Part shown: piece by piece, positions 2,369-13,160 of the stretch
Numbering within the stretch: the stretch's first letter is position 1
Layout: the number at the start of each line of letters is the position of its first letter
Source: a virus
IMG/VR virus record: IMGVR_UViG_3300037231_000029
Coordinates: 1 to 23,095 of that record
Strand: one strand, 5' to 3'
DNA length: 23,095 nt
Translations under genes and position numbers: made by a program
The notes under the pieces: model-generated
Told to the model about the DNA's origin: nothing
Databases searched by the model: none
What the model saw: only the letters and a program-made list of their open reading frames with translations

Positions 2369-4855
2369 TCACAAGAAGACGCTCGCAGGAGTGGCCAGCG
2401 CATGCACGCCGGTGGTCGGATTCCACGCCGCATCAAGCCCTACGTTCGTGTTGCTGGTCGGCTTCGCGTAGGTACCATTCACCAGACACGCACCGAACCA
2501 GTTCTGCGAGACGTTGGAGGCAGTAAGATCGTTATCGTCGATTGCCCAGTACATCCAACCCAAACCTTGCGCTTCGCACTCGCTCACGATTTGCGCGGCG
2601 CTGGTGAGCGTCGGGCTGCCGTCACTCGTACCGATGTACTTGCCAGGGCCGAACTCGCCCACGATCACGCACACGCCGGAACTTGCGAGCGCTGCCAACG
2701 CCGGAATGATCAATTGATAATGATCACCCGAGTAAATCGTGCCACCGCTCGTATAAGGGCTGAATGCGCTGCTGTCGAGCGTCACTGTTATCTCGCCCAG
2801 GCTGCCGTAGCCAGTCAGGGGCGGGGACAAACCATTGATCTGCGTCATGCCATCGACGCCATCGATATACACCGTCGAGGCGGCATCTGTGCTGCCTGAC
2901 GGGGACACGCCCGGGATAAAGTTCGCAAACGTGTTATGCGCCCCGGCGTTGGTAAAAGCAATCACTGTACTGGTGGCGCCCGGCGTGATGCCGGTAATTT
3001 GCGCCTGCGCGTTCATGCAGCCGCCATACGCATGAAACGAGAACATCGTATTCTTCAGCGTATCGCTCGCGAGCACCGCGGCTGCGGAGCTGACAATCAC
3101 TTCGTACGACTGACCATCACCACACGCATCGACCAACAGCGGACAGGTATAGCCTGCCGTGCGCATGTTCTCGACCGCACTTACATAGGACGATTCCCAA
3201 GTCGCGGCGGTATTATCGCCGTCCCATTCGTTGGCGATGTTGATGATGATCGAATCCATGATGGGCGCGAATGTCGCCACATTCGCCACCCACCAATCAA
3301 CACACGTCGCCAAATCCGCCGTGCTCGTATCACCGCTCGTGCGAGTCATCGTATTAGGCACGTAGGACATGGTGATGACAGGCAGAATGCCGAGGCTCAC
3401 ATATTCAGCGGCCACCGCCTCATAGGTGCTGGCGGGATTACCGCCTGTCCCCACCAAATACATAAACACCCGTTGCGTGTTGCAACCGAAGGCGGTTGCA
3501 ACCGAATACGAATCCGAATCATAGTGGTTCTGATTCATGCCGCGGATGCGAAATACCGCGCCGTTCGGATCGCGCAAGATACCGCCAGGATCGACAAAGA
3601 AGCCGTTCGATGCGCTCGAATTGTACGAAGGCCGCGAGACGTTGGTATTCTCTGCGACCACCATACTGAAGGTCGCGGATACTGGAACCGCCGCGCTATC
3701 GACCAACGTCACCACGATGTCATTGAAGGTACCGTTCTCCGTCGGCGCACCGCTGATATTGCCCGCCGTCGACATCGAATGTCCCGAGGGCAGTCCCGTC
3801 GCGCTCCAGCTTTGGCCGCTGCCTGTCCCGCCTGCGCACGTCATTTGATGCTGGTAGGCGTTCGATTGCATCGAACCTGGCAATGGCGTAACCGCCTTTT
3901 CCAGCGCGCAGCCCAAGATGGTCAGCGCCGTGTTGGTCGTCACGCTGATGTTCGCGGTCGCAGTCGCGCCGGTGTTATCCGTGGCGATCACGGGTAACGT
4001 GACGGGGCCTTCAGCGGTAGTCGGCGCCACCTCGAGACAGCCAGTCAAAGACATCTGATAGGAATTAACGCCGCCCAATCCAGCGCACAGCATTGCAGGC
4101 CCAGTGCTATTGCCATTGGAGAAGTTCATCGTCGTCGTGATAGTCCACGCGCCCGAAGATCCGCCCAATCCGGTAATTGCACCGCTCGAATACAGCGTCT
4201 TCGGCCACGAGCCATTGACCGGAATTGCCACCGTGCACTGCGTCTGCCCGGTGAAGGGGTTTGTCTCGGAGACCGTGCTGACCGTGAACACTGCATCCGT
4301 CGTCGCCGTGGTGGCGCTGATCGTCGCCTCTACCTCCCAGTCAAATGTCCAGGTGATCGGCGCCACGCCGCCGGTCTGGGACAGTTGGTAAAACCCACTA
4401 CCATTGACGGGAATGGCCGGAATCGTTGGCAACGTGATCGCGAAGCCGCCGGTGATGGTGTACGCAGCGCTCGCTACCGCGCTATTGGCAAGCCCCCCCG
4501 CCACCCCGATGGCATTGACCGTCTGCGAGCTGCTGACCGTGATAGCCGCGGTATAGATCTGCGTCGTACCGGTGATCGGATACGTCGGCGTCGAATCATC
4601 CGTGGTGTAGTAAATCGACGAACCGGCCGTCGCGCACGAAATGGCGACGCTCTGCGAACTCGAATAACTGCCCGCGACGGGTGAAAACGTCGGCGGCACC
4701 ACAGATCCGCCGAACGGCGTGCCGCGCGGGTTACGCGCCCACGAACGGCGCCCGAGAACCGATGCGACCGCAGTCGCAAGCGCGCTTTTGGCAAACTTCC
4801 GCCGATCCATGGCGCGGCGCCGATAGCGCCAATATTTCCGGGGAAGCGCGCTCAT
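2369..4855 (-). CDS. Tat-signal GH5-family glycoside hydrolase (mannanase-like) with Ig-like domains
   Basis: An 828-residue multidomain protein. Residues 16-35 hold a twin-arginine type signal (MDRRKFAK followed by a hydrophobic SALATAVASVLG). Residues about 50-134 resemble the chitobiase/hexosaminidase C-terminal Ig-like domain (SSIYYTTDDSTPT). Residues about 310-400 look like a putative-Ig domain (GLPSGHSMSTAGNISGAPTE). Residues about 411-795 are a glycoside hydrolase family 5 domain: the acid/base Glu543 is in NIANEWDG, KNTMFSFHAYGG precedes the seventh strand, and the nucleophile Glu734 is in VIVGEFGPG, followed by GWMYWAIDDND. These phrases are closest to bacterial beta-1,4-mannanases of GH5 (subfamily 8 from memory). 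A foreign beta domain (about 617-707) interrupts the catalytic domain. The ATG is 4 bases after the stop of the 835-residue gene, implying coupling. It may degrade host surface polysaccharide; substrate is inferred. Confidence 0.8.
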   Translation of the reverse strand: MSALPRKYWRYRRRAMDRRKFAKSALATAVASVLGRRSWARNPRGTPFGGSVVPPTFSPVAGSYSSSQSVAISCATAGSSIYYTTDDSTPTYPITGTTQIYTAAITVSSSQTVNAIGVAGGLANSAVASAAYTITGGFAITLPTIPAIPVNGSGFYQLSQTGGVAPITWTFDWEVEATISATTATTDAVFTVSTVSETNPFTGQTQCTVAIPVNGSWPKTLYSSGAITGLGGSSGAWTITTTMNFSNGNSTGPAMLCAGLGGVNSYQMSLTGCLEVAPTTAEGPVTLPVIATDNTGATATANISVTTNTALTILGCALEKAVTPLPGSMQSNAYQHQMTCAGGTGSGQSWSATGLPSGHSMSTAGNISGAPTENGTFNDIVVTLVDSAAVPVSATFSMVVAENTNVSRPSYNSSASNGFFVDPGGILRDPNGAVFRIRGMNQNHYDSDSYSVATAFGCNTQRVFMYLVGTGGNPASTYEAVAAEYVSLGILPVITMSYVPNTMTRTSGDTSTADLATCVDWWVANVATFAPIMDSIIINIANEWDGDNTAATWESSYVSAVENMRTAGYTCPLLVDACGDGQSYEVIVSSAAAVLASDTLKNTMFSFHAYGGCMNAQAQITGITPGATSTVIAFTNAGAHNTFANFIPGVSPSGSTDAASTVYIDGVDGMTQINGLSPPLTGYGSLGEITVTLDSSAFSPYTSGGTIYSGDHYQLIIPALAALASSGVCVIVGEFGPGKYIGTSDGSPTLTSAAQIVSECEAQGLGWMYWAIDDNDLTASNVSQNWFGACLVNGTYAKPTSNTNVGLDAAWNPTTGVHALATPASVFL

Positions 4856-8499: not shown

Positions 8500-9399
8500 C
8501 TACGCGACGACCGGAGTCCGGTAATGGTCGCAGAGCCCGACGACGTCCGGCGGCAGCGTACCCACTTGGCCGCGAGCGGCGCCGACCCAATAGCGCTCGC
8601 TGCCGAGACTTTGCGGCTGATCGCGCTGGACGAGGAACGGATCGCGGCCACGGGCCCTGAAGCGCGCCGTCACCATGCGCAGCGCCGCCTCCACCAGATC
8701 ATCGGGAATTATCGGATAGCCACCCTGGTACTGCACCGTCACGGGCTCCGATTCCCATTTCTCGGATGTGCCCGTCCACGAGTTCAGGCGAATCAGCCAG
8801 CCGCGGCATGCGTCGACCGTGAAATCCTTACCGTAGACCAGGGTTTGCGTGTCACCGGCGGCGAGGGTTTGGACCACCTGCAGGGCCGTGGTGATTGAGA
8901 GACCGATTTCGGAGCTCGTCGCCGCTTGGCTCAAGATGATCGAATTGGGGTTGACGGTTTCAATCGTCGTGCCCGGCGGGATGCTGCCGTCGGCCGCGAA
9001 CGCAAGATCACCCTCCTCGATCCCCGCGGTGCTCGCGATGGTGTCGACGAGCGTCGAGCCGTAGGTGTTCCCCGTAAAAGTAACCGGCGTTGAATCGACG
9101 AGCGGCCAGCGCGTGAGCTGCAACGGATAGATGCCGCCCGGGACCTGCCATGGGAAAGGGTCCTGCTGGATGAATATCTCGTCCTGAATCGCCTCGACCT
9201 GAAAGGTGCGATTGCAGTAATGCTTGATCGCGATCGAGGACTGCGTGATGGCCCGCGAGAAGAAAGGGTCATTCGACGTGTCCGTCGTCGCCACGCTCAA
9301 TTCATCGTGCACCGTCGCCAGCTCGGTCAAATCGTAGGGGCCCGCCGGTGCTGTGGCCGTCGCGGCGATCAGCACCGTCGTAATGATCTCGACGGCCAC
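8500..9399 (-). CDS. Head-tail connector (gp6-like) with inserted beta domain
   Basis: A 299-residue protein, longer than the usual roughly 190-240 of the family. The N-terminal helical half (LTELATVHDELSV, then ITQSSIAIKHYCNRTF) and the C-terminal block DLVEAALRMVTARFRARGRD with LVQRDQPQSLGSERYWVG are typical of phage head-tail connectors that form a ring under the portal. Residues about 112-172 are an extra beta-rich segment containing GIEEGDLAF, then SIPPGTTIETV and SIILSQAATS, related to the segment inserted in the terminator protein. Start codon is GTG (9399-9397), two bases after the stop of the preceding 135-residue gene; no strong Shine-Dalgarno is visible, consistent with coupling. 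Confidence 0.8.
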   Translation of the reverse strand: MAVEIITTVLIAATATAPAGPYDLTELATVHDELSVATTDTSNDPFFSRAITQSSIAIKHYCNRTFQVEAIQDEIFIQQDPFPWQVPGGIYPLQLTRWPLVDSTPVTFTGNTYGSTLVDTIASTAGIEEGDLAFAADGSIPPGTTIETVNPNSIILSQAATSSEIGLSITTALQVVQTLAAGDTQTLVYGKDFTVDACRGWLIRLNSWTGTSEKWESEPVTVQYQGGYPIIPDDLVEAALRMVTARFRARGRDPFLVQRDQPQSLGSERYWVGAARGQVGTLPPDVVGLCDHYRTPVVA

Positions 9400-9401
9400 G
9401 C

Positions 9402-9809
9402 TTATCCGACCTGATCAGATTGCATATCGATGCTGAGCATCGAGGCACCCCCATAAGTGCCGGTCGTCTGATATTTGATGCGGATCTGGTTTCCGAGAAT
9501 GCCATCCTTCGATGTATTGCCCGTGAGCGTCCCATCGGATGGCGTATACTCCGCGGTCACCGGTGTCTGACTGTTCAGGTTGTACACGAACCGGCCGGAG
9601 GCCGTTGTGAATCCGAATTGAGCAACATCGATCCATGTCGCAGCATTGTCTAAAGTCGTCTGCACCCAGGCATTGACCGTCGCGCCGCCTGAGTCATAGT
9701 TGAAATTCCCTTGTATACAAAGATTGCGCGGCGCCACAGTGAATCGAACGGGATTGGTCGTCGCGAGCGCGACCGCGGTGCCGATGGCTTTCAAATTCAG
9801 GAGATTCAT
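9402..9809 (-). CDS. Small beta-rich protein of the head module, function unknown
   Basis: A 135-residue protein that I cannot assign. It is predicted to be beta-rich, with NAWVQTTLDNAATWIDVAQF in the middle and RIKYQTTGTYGGASMLSIDM near the end. The TLDNAATW phrase resembles a degenerate Asp-box (S/T-x-D-x-G-x-T-W). The 146-residue protein encoded at 11187-11627 has a similar arrangement. The location between capsid and connector genes fits a minor head or decoration protein, but this is inference. GAGG lies 6 bases before the ATG at 9809, which is itself only about 20 bases after a terminator-like hairpin, so expression may need readthrough or a local promoter. Confidence 0.65.
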   Translation of the reverse strand: MNLLNLKAIGTAVALATTNPVRFTVAPRNLCIQGNFNYDSGGATVNAWVQTTLDNAATWIDVAQFGFTTASGRFVYNLNSQTPVTAEYTPSDGTLTGNTSKDGILGNQIRIKYQTTGTYGGASMLSIDMQSDQVG

Positions 9810-9828
9810 GATCAGCCTCGCTTAAATG

Positions 9829-9861
9829 AAAAAGGGCGGCGCCCTTTCGGACGTCGCCCTT
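9829..9861 (-). terminator. Intrinsic terminator-like hairpin downstream of the HTH cassette
   Basis: On the minus strand AAGGGCGAC (9861-9853) can pair with GCCGCCCTT (9840-9832), with one A/C mismatch and a 12-base loop, followed by TTTTTC. It lies between the downstream pentamer array and the 135-residue gene, so it would end transcripts coming through the HTH gene. The next gene starts about 20 bases later. Confidence 0.6.
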
Positions 9862-9867
9862 CGAATT

Positions 9868-9962
9868 ACCTCACCATGCCTCGCCATGCCCAGCCCTACC
9901 ACAGCCCAACCCACCTCACCAAGCCGAGCCGTTCCTGACCAGAACTAGCCGCACCTCGCCAC
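9868..9962 (-). repeat. 5-bp periodic NNGGY array, downstream copy (19 units)
   Basis: Read in steps of five on the minus strand from 9962, the units run GTGGC, GAGGT, GCGGC, TAGTT, CTGGT, CAGGA, ACGGC, TCGGC, TTGGT, GAGGT and so on to GAGGT at 9872-9868. Sixteen of 19 units have GG at positions 3-4. There is no insertion or deletion of a base over 95 bp. The first three units encode the last residues (VARCG) and stop of the HTH gene; the rest fill the gap to the terminator hairpin. Unit sequences vary except for the GG, so this is not a simple tandem duplication. Confidence 0.8.
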
Positions 9963-10136
9963 AGGATCTTCGATCTTATTCACCATCTTGAAAAGCTTCA
10001 CCGCGCCGGGCGGAACATCGTTCTTCCCAGATTCCCAGCGCGCCCACGTTCGTACTGAGACTTCAACCTGCCTCGCAGCCTGCGCGAGCGAGAGCTTGAG
10101 CGTTTTCCGCAGGGCCTTGAGTTCCGCTCCGGTCAT
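9945..10136 (-). CDS. Small XRE-family helix-turn-helix protein
   Basis: A 63-residue protein that is almost entirely a Cro/C1-type HTH domain: ELKALRKTLKLSLAQAARQV is the first helices, then the recognition helix in VSVRTWARWESGKNDVPPGA. It probably binds DNA as a dimer and acts as a local regulator. It is out of place in a structural operon. Its gene is flanked on both sides by the 5-bp periodic arrays: the unit GAGGT at 10144-10140 provides a GAGG 4 bases before the ATG, and the last codons GTG GCG AGG TGC GGC TAG are themselves array units. A perfect inverted repeat at 10869-10889, upstream of the partner gene, is a reasonable operator candidate. Confidence 0.85.
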   Translation of the reverse strand: MTGAELKALRKTLKLSLAQAARQVEVSVRTWARWESGKNDVPPGAVKLFKMVNKIEDPVARCG

Positions 10137-10139
10137 TGA

Positions 10140-10204
10140 ACCTCACCATACCCAACCACGACGTGCCCGACCGAGCCGTGCCACGCCCGACCAAACCAAG
10201 CCTC
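10140..10204 (-). repeat. 5-bp periodic NNGGY array, upstream copy (13 units)
   Basis: Read on the minus strand from 10204 the units are GAGGC, TTGGT, TTGGT, CGGGC, GTGGC, ACGGC, TCGGT, CGGGC, ACGTC, GTGGT, TGGGT, ATGGT, GAGGT. Twelve of 13 have GG at positions 3-4 followed by C or T. The array starts within the TGA stop of the 206-residue gene and ends 3 bases before the ATG of the HTH gene, so it fills the whole gap. The last unit doubles as Shine-Dalgarno sequence. Confidence 0.8.
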
Positions 10205-10823
10205 AAATCCTCTCGAACCTTGTAACCTCAAATCGCCCATAGGTTGGTCTGAAGTCCCCAACGCCGACGAGCCGCCCGGCCATGCCGAGCACCTCCATGA
10301 GGAAAGTCTGGTCAATGTACTCCGGCACGTTCACCATGAGATCAATCTCGCATTTCCACCCGACGCGCAGCGCCGGCCGCACGCGGGTGATGGCGTTGCG
10401 CTGAACAACGGCACGGCGCCGGTCTTCGTATTCCCACGCTTTCACCCCCAGCGAGGCAAGCGGCGTCATGGCAATGATGCCAGCCTTGAAGAGATCCATC
10501 GCCGACTTGCGCGGGCTGCGCGGGTCTTGGCGGAATTTCGCCGCCGTCACAATCGAACCACGCAGATATTCGCCCGGCAGGCAGAGTTGCTCCTTGTCGT
10601 TGCGGTAGACGTAGCTCTCGACGTTATCCGTCTTTTTCGCGGCGCTGCCCTTGCGTGCGTTGGCCTTTTCAGCGACCGCCTCATTGTTCCAGCGGTGAAA
10701 TAACAGGTCCGCCACACCAGTGATCTGCACACGGCAGGCCCACGGCTCTCCGATCGCAATCTGTTCCTTGGCGCCGTTCGTCGTCGATTCGACCGCCAAT
10801 CCCAATTTCAATGCTGCATTCAT
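10203..10823 (-). CDS. Unknown 206-residue phage protein upstream of HTH gene
   Basis: I chose the ATG at 10823 because GGAG lies 6 bases upstream; the frame is open to an earlier ATG at 10895, but that would place the coding start across the inverted repeat at 10869-10889. The protein begins MNAALKLGLAVES, contains ITGVADLLFHRWNNEAVAEK, a basic stretch NARKGSAAKKTDN, then CLPGEYLRGSIVTAAKF and, near the end, GRLVGVGDFRPTYGRFEVTR. I recall phage proteins of unknown function with the same order of blocks (LLxHR, LPGxxLRxxxVxAA, VGxxDFRPxxGRF). The glycine-rich C-terminal part is loosely reminiscent of RAMP/Cas7-type RNA-binding proteins, but I cannot support that without structure comparison. 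It is coupled with the HTH gene through the array. Confidence 0.65.
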   Translation of the reverse strand: MNAALKLGLAVESTTNGAKEQIAIGEPWACRVQITGVADLLFHRWNNEAVAEKANARKGSAAKKTDNVESYVYRNDKEQLCLPGEYLRGSIVTAAKFRQDPRSPRKSAMDLFKAGIIAMTPLASLGVKAWEYEDRRRAVVQRNAITRVRPALRVGWKCEIDLMVNVPEYIDQTFLMEVLGMAGRLVGVGDFRPTYGRFEVTRFERI

Positions 10824-10866
10824 GGCTCTCTCCATACCACGGCCAAACGCCACGGTTTCAACATGC

Positions 10867-10895
10867 AGCCTATGCCATTTTGGCATAGGAATCAA
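10867..10895 (-). promoter_or_regulatory. Candidate operator/promoter: perfect 9-bp inverted repeat
   Basis: The arms CCTATGCCA and TGGCATAGG (10889-10881 and 10877-10869 on the minus strand) are perfect and separated by AAA. The repeat lies in the 85-bp gap before the 206-residue gene, 45 bases from its ATG. TTGATT (10895-10890) and TAGGCT (10872-10867) are 17 bases apart and could be weak -35 and -10 elements with the repeat between them; the -10 match is poor. A symmetric site here fits binding by a dimeric regulator such as the nearby HTH protein. Confidence 0.5.
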
Positions 10896-10908
10896 CCAAA
10901 CGTCCCGA

Positions 10909-11118
10909 TCAGCCTCGTTTTCTAGTCATGTAACGGCCCTTGTTGGGCGGCAACGGTGCTGCCACGGGAACCCGTGGCGCAACATCCGGTGGCGGAAAGG
11001 GCCGCGAATCTTCGGCATCGCCATCCTTGACGAGCTTCGCCGCGAGCGCTTCGGGCAGCACGGCATCCTGGCCTTTACCCCACGGGCGCATATCGCGCGT
11101 CATCCGAACAATGCGCAT
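10909..11118 (-). CDS. Small head-module protein, 69 residues
   Basis: A short gene starting at the ATG at 11118, with AAGGAG 5 bases upstream. The protein begins MRIVRMTRDMRPWGKGQDAV and continues LPEALAAKLVKDGDAED, a layout common in small phage proteins encoded after the capsid gene: a short beta strand, a Gly turn and a helix ending in GDAE. The C-terminal third is Pro-rich (FPPPDVAP, then APLPPNKG) and ends in a basic tail (MTRKRG). No function is known to me. It lies between the 146-residue gene and the HTH cassette. A longer frame reaching 11493 exists, but it overlaps the 146-residue gene and is not credible there. Confidence 0.75.
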   Translation of the reverse strand: MRIVRMTRDMRPWGKGQDAVLPEALAAKLVKDGDAEDSRPFPPPDVAPRVPVAAPLPPNKGRYMTRKRG

Positions 11119-11186
11119 ACCTGCTCCTTGAGCACTGAGGAAGACGCCGACGCATGGGCGCCGGCGCCATCTCCATCCATGGCCGG

Positions 11187-11627
11187 TTAGACCGCGGCGA
11201 TCGTCTGCTCGCCGCCCAGGATGACCCCGGCGCTGACGCCAATCGTCGGCGTGGTGCCGCCGGTGAAGCTGACCACCGTCACGACGCGGATATACCGATA
11301 GGCGAGCGCGAGATCGATCGCATAGTTCTGGTCGGTATTGACGGCCGTGATCGCTGCACCCTGCGCGGTGTTGGTCCCGTCGAAGAGAAAGTTGGTCCAG
11401 GTCGCATTGTCGGGCGCGTGCTGCAGCGTCGATTGAACGCTCACACCGCTGGGCGCGCCCGTCTCGGCGCCGGTGGAGGTGCGAAGGACGCACGAGAGCG
11501 GCATCGAATGCTTTTGCCGGTCGATGCTCACGCCGTCGATGGTCGCCGCAGCAGAGGCCTGCGGCTCGACGCTCGACGCCTCGACAACGAGCGCGCCAAT
11601 ATTGTGCTGTTGAACTTGGTCAGACAT
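11187..11627 (-). CDS. Small beta-rich protein following the capsid gene (possible decoration protein)
   Basis: A 146-residue protein encoded directly downstream of the major capsid gene, a common place for head decoration or stabilisation proteins. It has VQSTLQHAPDNATWTNFLFD in the middle and YRYIRVVTVVSFTGGTTPTI near the end. The DNATW phrase and the following strand pattern recall the 135-residue protein at 9402-9809, and the two could share a fold. AGGAG lies 8 bases before the ATG at 11627. The ribosome binding site comes right after the T-run of a strong hairpin, so this gene is separated from the capsid gene by a terminator or attenuator. Role as decoration protein is an inference from position. 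Confidence 0.65.
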   Translation of the reverse strand: MSDQVQQHNIGALVVEASSVEPQASAAATIDGVSIDRQKHSMPLSCVLRTSTGAETGAPSGVSVQSTLQHAPDNATWTNFLFDGTNTAQGAAITAVNTDQNYAIDLALAYRYIRVVTVVSFTGGTTPTIGVSAGVILGGEQTIAAV

Positions 11628-11640
11628 GGAAATGACTCCT

Positions 11641-11668
11641 GAAAAGAAAAGGGCGGCCGAAGCCGCCC
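11641..11668 (-). terminator. Intrinsic terminator with TTCG loop after the capsid gene
   Basis: On the minus strand GGGCGGC (11668-11662), loop TTCG, GCCGCCC (11657-11651), then TTTTCTTTTC (11650-11641). A perfect 7-bp GC stem with a stable tetraloop and T-run is a textbook intrinsic terminator. It lies 41 bases after the capsid stop codon and immediately before the Shine-Dalgarno of the next gene, as expected if the capsid mRNA is partly ended here. Confidence 0.85.
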
Positions 11669-11708
11669 CTAATGGTCCTGAGTAGGGGGATGAACTAACC
11701 CAGGGACA

Positions 11709-13160
11709 TCAACTTATGGCGGGGGCCCAGCGAACAAACTGATCAACTGCCACCGCCGCATCGTGCCGAATCTGGAAATCGTGCTCGGCGATCGCGCGGA
11801 TCAACGTCTGATCGCTCTGGAACGCCGACCAGGTCGTACCGCCCGCATCGATGTAGGTGCCTTCGCGGGACACCGCGAGTTCCAAGGACATCGAGTCCAG
11901 GATCATCGATTCGTCCATTTCGGCCAGAATCACGAACGAGCAATCCGAATTGGTGCCCGTCGTGTCGACGATGTTGATCGGGATCTGCGTGGACTTCTTC
12001 ACCGGATAGCTCAACAGCTTGCCGGTCAGCAGTTCCTCGCGATACACGTACACGCCCAAGGAATTCTGCACGTTGAAGAGATAGTTGTAGCTCCTCGGGT
12101 GCATGAACCAGGTGCGCCGGGTATCTTCCACGTTCGCGGTATCGAGCTTGTTCACCAGGCCGCCGAGTTCTTGCGCCGCCGTTGCCAGCGTGTAGGTCTC
12201 GTTCGAGGTGATGAAGTTGCCACCGACCGCCGCCGTTGAGTCGGCAGTGCTGGACCAGGCGCCGGCCGTGCCGCCGCCGGTGAGCGCGAACCGATTCGCA
12301 AACGCCGTGTAACCCATCGGGGTCGCCTGCGTGCCGTCACCCAGGAGGAACGCCAAGTCTTCGCGCAGCGCCACGATCTTCACCAGATCGTCACGCACGA
12401 AGGCATCGGCCGCCGGATCCGCGTAGCGCATCAGGTCATTGGTCACCGGGACCAAGGCCGTGAGCTTCTTGAAGCTCGCGATGATCTGACCGACCGTCTG
12501 CTGGGAGCTTGCGATCTTGGAGATCTCCGTCCCGTAGCCTGCGGTACCGGCTCCGGTCTGTGCCGGCATGGTCATGGTTCCGCGGGGCATCGGAATGACG
12601 CGCGGGCCAGAGCTTCGCACGACCGCCTTCGGACGCAGGAGCTCGATGATCTCGTTCATGTAATCGGGCGGCACGATGAAGCCGCCAGAGGCGCCGACCG
12701 AGGTCACGAGAGCGCGAGTGACCGGATCGCGCCGCATCTCGAAGGCGCGAACGATCGGGTGGCGTTCGCCGAAACTGGCAATTGCCATCTCCCGCGCACC
12801 CTGCAGGCTATTGCCGGCGCTGTGGAACATCTTGGCGCAGGCGATCGCGCGCAGGCCCTTGTGTGTGGTAAGCCCGCGCTGAATCGCAGCCGCTTCGTTC
12901 GTATACGGGTCGTCATCGACGGCCTGGATATGCACCTCACCGGCACCGCTCGGGTCCGACGGCTGGGCGCCGGCGGTCATCAACGTCTGAATCTCGCGTG
13001 CGCGCGTGATCTGACCGTCGATATCCTCAACGGCGCGCTTTTTCGCCGGATAGTCTTTTACCTCGTCATCGCTGAGCTTGTCTTTGACCGCCAGCGCCTG
13101 GTACGCGTCGAAAGCGAGCGCGCGCTTTTTCACGAGGTCACTGATTTTGACCTGATCCAT
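11709..13160 (-). CDS. HK97-type major capsid protein
   Basis: A protein of 483 residues from the ATG at 13160, chosen because AGGAG lies 6 bases upstream; a frame extension to 13208 has no such signal. The first 75 or so residues are a charged helical region (ISDLVKKRALAFDAYQALA, then DIDGQITRAREIQ), the delta/scaffold domain of HK97-fold capsid proteins, normally removed by the prohead protease. The core follows with GASGGFIVPPDYMNEIIELL, ASFKKLTALVPVTNDLMRYA, EDLAFLLGDGTQATPMGYT and a C-terminal AIAEHDFQIRHDAAVAVDQF, all typical of the Phage_capsid family. It assembles into the icosahedral shell. The protease gene is just upstream and a strong terminator just downstream. A short hairpin (GCGCTT-TTG-AAGCGC) precedes the ribosome binding site. 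Confidence 0.95.
   Translation of the reverse strand: MDQVKISDLVKKRALAFDAYQALAVKDKLSDDEVKDYPAKKRAVEDIDGQITRAREIQTLMTAGAQPSDPSGAGEVHIQAVDDDPYTNEAAAIQRGLTTHKGLRAIACAKMFHSAGNSLQGAREMAIASFGERHPIVRAFEMRRDPVTRALVTSVGASGGFIVPPDYMNEIIELLRPKAVVRSSGPRVIPMPRGTMTMPAQTGAGTAGYGTEISKIASSQQTVGQIIASFKKLTALVPVTNDLMRYADPAADAFVRDDLVKIVALREDLAFLLGDGTQATPMGYTAFANRFALTGGGTAGAWSSTADSTAAVGGNFITSNETYTLATAAQELGGLVNKLDTANVEDTRRTWFMHPRSYNYLFNVQNSLGVYVYREELLTGKLLSYPVKKSTQIPINIVDTTGTNSDCSFVILAEMDESMILDSMSLELAVSREGTYIDAGGTTWSAFQSDQTLIRAIAEHDFQIRHDAAVAVDQFVRWAPAIS

What the first reader, a model, noticed from the sequence alone, without database searches (positions are those of the whole stretch)
9868..10204. Two 5-bp periodic NNGGY arrays flank a small HTH gene
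On the coding (minus) strand, 13 units fill the gap upstream of the HTH gene and 19 units run from its last codons to a terminator. GG recurs every 5 bases in 28 of 32 units without an indel, while the other three positions vary. That is not what slippage or duplication produces; selection for the spacing is more likely. The arrays tile the transcript exactly between coding signals. Possible roles: (a) an RNA site for an oligomeric protein reading a 5-base pitch, as TRAP does with NAG repeats (analogy only, motif differs); (b) serial two-layer G-quadruplexes, since GG-N3-GG-N3-GG-N3-GG is the basic pattern; (c) a decoy or modulator for ribosomes because units such as GAGGT resemble Shine-Dalgarno; (d) a recombination or mobility signature of the HTH cassette.
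Basis: partly seen in the sequence, partly recalled or inferred. Interest (0 to 1): 0.85.

Follow-up and report, generated by a model that had tools for sequence, protein, structure and literature searches.

The report
Phage VIPR guide-RNA cassette
The odd five-base repeats are two RNA guides of a newly described, CRISPR-like phage weapon (VIPR), sitting beside their own RAMP protein, and one guide spells out the counterpart, in other phages, of the very gene next door.

Summary
Shuffled windows never exceed a score of 6, against 10 observed. The arrays are vrRNAs of a VIPR system (preprint PMC13142463). The gene just upstream (10203-10823, -) is a Vipr/RAMP protein: a profile of its family hits one PDB sequence, SUSP1 Vipr 36pp, E=5e-43, and its AlphaFold model matches CRISPR Cas7/Csm3 subunits. 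GGY arrays follow this family: 71 of 96 viral contigs found by pattern alone carry it, 193 of 196 nearby arrays are on its strand, and 6 of 7 loci found by protein alone have arrays beside it. Read with the published one-base-skip rule, array 2 spells D/E-A-Y-L-Q-T-S-F-D-G-G-V-S-W-I-D. The best site in the window lies in frame in the adjacent downstream gene (26/38). Homologues in other viral contigs match better (28-32/38), including L271, which has the same head-gene module without the cassette. An 11-bp direct repeat brackets the cassette. The HTH gene recurs between arrays in another Vipr locus and is probably an accessory regulator. New member of a known kind; target and insertion site are new. 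Array 1's target is unresolved.

The parts
10203..10823 (-). vipr gene (RAMP/Cas7-like protein, 206 aa from ATG 10823; ATG 10835 and TTG 10895 are alternative starts)
   Evidence: Profile vs PDB: only hit 36pp SUSP1 Vipr, E=4.9e-43; phmmer E=1.6e-5; AlphaFold pLDDT 89.8, Foldseek PDB top hits type VII Cas7 and Csm3, E 4e-7; phrog_4652
10138..10202 (-). vrRNA array 1, 13 NNGGY units; NN = TT TT CG GT AC TC CG AC GT TG AT GA TC
   Evidence: score 10 vs shuffle maximum 6
9945..10136 (-). small HTH gene (63 aa), HTH_31 / Aca2-YdiL-like; candidate Vipr-accessory or autoregulator
   Evidence: Pfam; homologues beside Vipr in L257 and, again between two arrays, in L043
9866..9960 (-). vrRNA array 2, 19 units; NN = GA GC TA CT CA AC TC TT GA GG GG GT AG TG AT GA AT GA AA
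   Evidence: decoded target
9828..9862 (-). stable hairpin followed by T run after array 2: candidate vrRNA 3' tail and/or terminator
   Evidence: RNA fold -23.4 kcal/mol, z -2.8, 0/200 shuffles as stable; hairpins also follow arrays in L259, L260, L004, L015, L003. The simple consensus terminator scan reported none
9402..9809 (-). downstream structural-module gene (135 aa), the phage's own member of the family that array 2 matches
   Evidence: phmmer vs the target proteins E down to 5e-33
9618..9674 (-). best site in the window for array 2 under the 1-nt skip rule, 26/38 bases, skip base = codon wobble
   Evidence: 2/3000 order-shuffled guides reach 26
10869..10889 (-). perfect inverted repeat CCTATGCCA-AAA-TGGCATAGG upstream of vipr: candidate operator
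   Evidence: related motif GCCAATATGGCATA upstream of vipr in L257
10907..10917 (-). upstream copy of 11-bp direct repeat CGAGGCTGATC (holds the stop codon of the upstream gene)
9810..9820 (-). downstream copy of 11-bp direct repeat CGAGGCTGATC, abutting the ATG of the downstream gene

Best explanation
The arrays are the variable guide regions of two vrRNAs of a VIPR system carried in the head-gene module of a tailed phage. The Vipr protein (10203-10823) is inferred to polymerise along the RNA, holding each GGY and presenting each NN. The NN pairs are read against double-stranded DNA as NNxNNx (one base skipped), which falls on codon wobble positions. Array 2 is inferred to target a small structural-module gene of other phages. 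The phage's own copy of that gene, immediately downstream, is diverged at 12 of 38 guide positions and so would be spared or only weakly bound. Binding is expected to block transcription of the rival's head operon (exclusion of competing phages). The HTH protein is probably an accessory or autoregulatory factor. Shown here: array statistics, Vipr identity and fold, linkage, strand, decoded match, empty site in a related contig. Inferred: RNA processing, binding, repression, roles of the HTH protein and operator.
For: Vipr identity: profile vs PDB E=4.9e-43 to 36pp only; Cas7/Csm3 fold. Published mechanism: GGY/NN vrRNAs, 1-nt skip, wobble alignment, repression of rival phages (PMC13142463). 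Linkage: 71/96 GGY-array contigs carry Vipr against 3/24 contigs with other arrays; 6/7 protein-only loci have arrays within 300 bp; 193 same-strand vs 3 opposite. Target: a scan with 8 middle units gave 12 hits; 6 share one reading-frame motif, 5 of these 6 proteins are detectable homologues of the window's downstream gene, and the 6 match 14-16 of the 22 guide bases not used in the scan, the other 6 hits about 4-7. Self site 26/38 in frame, next best 21; skips 0 and 2 give at most 21; 2/3000 shuffled guides reach 26. L271 has MCP (70% identical), the upstream small gene, the target gene, head-tail adaptor and neck in the same order without the cassette; L271 site 31/38, L270 32/38, L290 11 consecutive units.
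Against: No perfect target was found; the best is 32/38 and the preprint gives no mismatch tolerance that I could apply. Array 2 has three units without GG and 19 units, above the 9-16 reported. Array 1 has no evident 3' hairpin and no significant target. Skip-0 and skip-2 control scans of the viral collection were not run (only in held DNA). No expression data. The self match of 26/38 leaves self-regulation possible.
Confidence: 0.9

Rival explanations
1. A VIPR system, but array 2 is an autoregulatory guide that tunes the phage's own downstream head operon rather than a weapon against rivals.
For: The best site in the window lies in the immediately downstream gene, in frame, and that gene starts 56 bp after the end of the array.
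Against: Own site matches only 26/38 with a longest run of 3 units, whereas homologues elsewhere reach 31-32/38 with runs of 8-11. The preprint reports targeting of competing elements.
Confidence: 0.12
2. The arrays are G-quadruplex-forming RNA or DNA elements (GG-N3 tetrads) acting on transcription or translation.
For: GG every 5 bases fits the minimal two-layer pattern; arrays lie on one strand.
Against: Third position is C/T in 94% of 3188 units, without need in a quadruplex; linkage to one protein family; NN order decodes a neighbouring gene family.
Confidence: 0.02
3. Ribosome decoy, low-complexity filler or a slippage product without guide function.
For: Units such as GAGGT resemble Shine-Dalgarno; the last units of array 1 lie just upstream of the HTH start codon.
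Against: Not reproduced by shuffles; NN near-uniform and no indel, so not slippage; Vipr linkage and decoded target.
Confidence: 0.02

Closest known systems
VIPR (Viral Interference Programmable Repeat) systems, e.g. Escherichia phage SUSP1 (PMC13142463; Vipr structure 36pp)
   Same: RAMP-fold Vipr protein, sense-strand GGY/NN arrays beside it, small accessory DNA-binding gene, phage location, match in rival phages read with 1-nt skip at codon wobble positions.
   Different: Full-length similarity to SUSP1 Vipr is remote (seen clearly only by profile); two arrays separated by an HTH gene; array 2 overlaps the HTH coding end and has 19 units; target is an ortholog of the neighbouring head gene rather than a satellite or a lysogeny regulator.
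Class 1 CRISPR-Cas RAMP backbones (Cas7, Csm3, type VII Cas7)
   Same: Fold (Foldseek E 4e-7) and the principle of a protein filament interrupting guide-target pairing at a fixed pitch.
   Different: No repeats-plus-spacers array and no cas genes noted around the locus; noncontiguous guide.
Phage DSL-LC04 (OR003939.1) locus
   Same: Vipr 60% identical, GGY arrays directly upstream.
   Different: Different accessory gene; Vipr is deposited as 'helix-turn-helix transcriptional regulator'; no HTH between arrays.
TRAP / trp leader NAG repeats
   Same: Oligomeric protein reading a short RNA pitch.
   Different: Different fold, motif and role; analogy only.

Membership tests
VIPR system | Vipr protein of the RAMP lineage, homologous to SUSP1 Vipr | tested here: met
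   Profile vs PDB: single hit 36pp, E=4.9e-43; Cas7/Csm3 fold
VIPR system | vrRNA of tandem YNNGG repeats with conserved GGY and hypervariable NN next to vipr | tested here: met
   13 and 19 units, the second above the 9-16 reported
VIPR system | Invariable structured 3' tail after the repeats | tested here: inconclusive
   Array 2 is followed by a stable hairpin; array 1 is not; the tail families of this clade were not modelled
VIPR system | Guide matches targets by the 1-nt skip rule, skip at wobble | tested here: met
   Array 2. Array 1: no significant target
VIPR system | Accessory vap gene in the locus | tested here: inconclusive
   HTH gene between arrays, recurrent in L043 and L257; identity with a published vap could not be checked
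VIPR system | vrRNA expressed, bound by Vipr, represses target DNA | not testable with these tools
   Needs small-RNA sequencing, pull-down and reporter assays
CRISPR-Cas class 1 | CRISPR array of identical repeats with unique spacers and cas genes | tested here: not met
   No such repeats in the region; no Cas family named among the window proteins scanned
Rfam-described RNA | Match to any of 4227 families | tested here: not met
   No hit at E<=1 in 8500-12000

The most novel reading that the evidence does not exclude
The cassette is a roughly 1.1-kb mobile moron that inserts beside a head gene and carries a guide against the rival allele of that very gene, so that weapon and resistant allele travel together (a gene-for-gene superinfection exclusion module), with the HTH protein as an Aca-like autoregulator acting on the palindrome upstream of vipr.
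Probability: 0.4. Interest if true: 0.78.

Novelty: new member of a known kind. Interest (0 to 1): 0.62.

Why it matters
VIPR was described only in 2026 and few natural targets are known. This locus gives independent support for the one-base-skip code from sequence alone. It also gives a clear natural target, the ortholog of the neighbouring head gene in a related phage that lacks the cassette, and shows how such a cassette can sit in a structural operon. It points to target choice by allele competition between close relatives, which can be tested with four short DNA sites and one small protein.

Tried and rejected
Nucleotide search of named phages with the array region: no match. Literature searches by repeat sequence or pentanucleotide terms found nothing relevant; the PDB hit led to the right paper. 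Pattern search of bacterial genomes alone is unspecific: only 5 of 119 hits have Vipr, many are GC-rich actinobacterial chromosomes. Array 1 target: best hits 20/26 (a large phage protein, phrog_38076) and 19/26 (a neck protein; a LuxR-like recognition helix by eye), all at the level expected by chance; not claimed. 398 genomes of the order of Shinella: no good target for either array. No tRNA, no Rfam RNA, no sigma-70-like promoter or consensus terminator in 9780-11200. No relative of the downstream gene among named phages. Self-targeting by arrays of the other Vipr loci: few, with skip 1 slightly ahead (4 of 168 at p<0.01, the window's own included, against 0 for skips 0 and 2); too weak to generalise. 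Reading the 11-bp repeat as proof of insertion: two unrelated stretches of similar size and distance share an 11-mer in 3.4% of trials, so the claim rests on its exact placement at both gene borders and on the empty site in L271.

Full report
OBSERVATION. The two arrays exist exactly as described: 13 units at 10202-10138 and 19 at 9960-9866 on the minus strand, GG in 28 of 32, no indel, pyrimidine third in 31 of 32. With +1 per GG unit and -2 otherwise both score 10. The best of 300 Markov-shuffled strands at each of four orders was 6, and shuffling the G-rich stretches themselves reached the observed score in 0 and 1 of 5000 trials. The plus strand has nothing above 3.

WHAT THE NEIGHBOURS ARE. 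Array 1 begins at the base after the stop codon of an unnamed gene (stop 10203-10205). Its product matches phrog_4652, unknown function, and no Pfam or NCBIfam model. Scanning viral contigs for nine GGs at 5-base pitch, with no reference to any protein, returned 120 contigs. Of those with diverse GGY arrays, 71 of 96 carry a homologue of this protein in the DNA held, against 3 of 24 with other kinds of array. Starting instead from the protein alone, 6 of 7 loci have arrays within 300 bp; the seventh, L254, has a more degenerate tract by eye. Within 2.5 kb of the homologues 193 arrays lie on its strand and 3 on the other. Over 3188 units the composition is G 98%, G 97%, C 72% + T 22%, then two nearly uniform positions.

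IDENTITY. One phmmer search of the PDB hit 'SUSP1 Vipr protein' (36pp, E=1.6e-5). A profile of 47 homologues hits that sequence only, over its whole length, at E=4.9e-43. The AlphaFold model (pLDDT 89.8) matches type VII Cas7 and Csm3 subunits of CRISPR effector complexes (best E 3.9e-7). The name led to a preprint (PMC13142463) describing VIPR: a RAMP protein older than CRISPR; vrRNAs of 9-16 YNNGG units with conserved GGY and hypervariable NN; double-stranded DNA recognition in which the NN pairs are read with one skipped base (NNxNNx), the skip falling on codon wobble positions; and use against competing phages. The window is a member.

DECODING. Array 2 read this way gives GAx GCx TAx CTx CAx ACx TCx TTx GAx GGx GGx GTx AGx TGx ATx GAx ATx GAx AAx. 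In the window the best site (26/38) is 9618-9674 (-), in frame, in the immediately downstream gene 9402-9809: N-A-W-V-Q-T-T-L-D-N-A-A-T-W-I-D-V-A-Q. The next best scores 21, and skips of 0 or 2 give at most 21. Shuffling the order of the NN units reaches 26 in 2 of 3000 trials. Independently, scanning viral contigs with only 8 middle units gave 12 hits. Six (L264, L266, L268, L269, L270, L271) read '[YW]VQTS[FL]DGGVT' or, in L266, 'YLQTSFDGGVT' in the same frame and match 14-16 of the 22 guide bases not used in the scan, while the other six match about 4-7 (expectation 5.5). A second scan added L288, L290 (two genes) and L303. All ten sites score 28-32; the best site outside this group scores 25. 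phmmer with the window's downstream protein finds the L290, L271, L270, L288, L269, L264 and L268 proteins at E 5e-33 to 1e-24 and L303 at 9e-7; L266 was not found, so its membership rests on the motif alone. The guide matches these genes better than it matches the phage's own copy (longest run of fully matched units 8-11 against 3).

THE RIVAL AND THE EMPTY SITE. L271 carries, in the same order as the window, a major capsid protein 70% identical, the small upstream gene, the target gene, the head-tail adaptor and the neck protein, with other genes between capsid gene and small gene. In L271 the small gene and the target gene overlap by ATGA with nothing between. In the window the same two genes are separated by the Vipr-array-HTH-array-hairpin cassette, and CGAGGCTGATC stands at both borders (10917-10907, holding the upstream stop codon; 9820-9810, abutting the downstream ATG). 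This suggests insertion with an 11-bp duplication. An 11-mer shared by chance between stretches of this size is not rare (3.4%), so the weight is on its exact placement and on the empty site.

THE HTH GENE. The 63-aa protein is HTH_31 and also passes the Pfam cut-off of Aca2/YdiL. Close homologues occur just downstream of Vipr and arrays in L257 (62% identical) and, again between two GGY arrays and before a terminator-like hairpin, in L043, whose Vipr is distant. A perfect 9-3-9 palindrome, CCTATGCCAAAATGGCATAGG, lies upstream of vipr (10889-10869). Its core GCCANNNTGGC occurs once in the window, and L257 has GCCAATATGGCATA about 150 bp upstream of its vipr ORF. I infer an operator for the HTH protein, by analogy with anti-CRISPR-associated (Aca) regulators (own knowledge). 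The last units of array 1 (GGTGAGGTTCA-ATG) can serve as the HTH gene's Shine-Dalgarno, and array 2 starts in its last codons.

TAIL. A stable hairpin with a T run follows array 2 (z -2.8, 0/200 shuffles); hairpins follow arrays in L259, L260, L004, L015 and L003. Array 1 has none, so whether it gives a separate vrRNA is open.

HOST. The terminase is closest to Sinorhizobium and Rhizobium phages (61-63% identity), so an alphaproteobacterial host is likely but not shown.

LIMITS. Array 1 has no significant target. No perfect target of array 2 was found. Control scans of the viral collection with other skip lengths were not run. Everything about RNA processing, binding and repression in this phage is inferred from the preprint.

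Noticed in passing
L004 500-1200 (minus strand): Downstream of Vipr, short GGY arrays alternate with near-identical copies of a hairpin unit (TTATTGCRAGGAATARGGCGGCTAA...CCGCCTTATRACGTGCAATC): a CRISPR-like layout in which the variable parts are vrRNA guides and the constant parts look like tails.
   Followed up: partly
L027 6311-7015 (+), L090 minus strand: Very long GGY arrays, scored as 141 and 161 units in one register (L090 with further arrays of 50 and 33 units), far above the 9-16 units of published vrRNAs; possibly the staggered overlapping type.
   Followed up: no
L243 3977-4594 (phage DSL-LC04, OR003939.1): Its Vipr is deposited as 'helix-turn-helix transcriptional regulator', and the GGY arrays upstream (3660-3940) carry no annotated feature.
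   Followed up: partly
window 11187-11627 (-): This 146-aa protein contains 'SVQSTLQHAPDNATWTNFLFDG', which resembles the target-gene motif by eye; it may be a paralogue of the gene at 9402-9809.
   Followed up: no
L194: A bacterial MAG contig (Alphaproteobacteria CAR1_bin_3) carries two Vipr homologues within 8 kb.
   Followed up: no
L206 635-1210 (-): A Vipr homologue on a contig of a Thermoplasmata archaeon MAG that was found by its GGY array.
   Followed up: no
window 3479-3502: Perfect inverted repeat with 10-bp arms inside a long predicted ORF (2369-4855, -) of unknown function.
   Followed up: no
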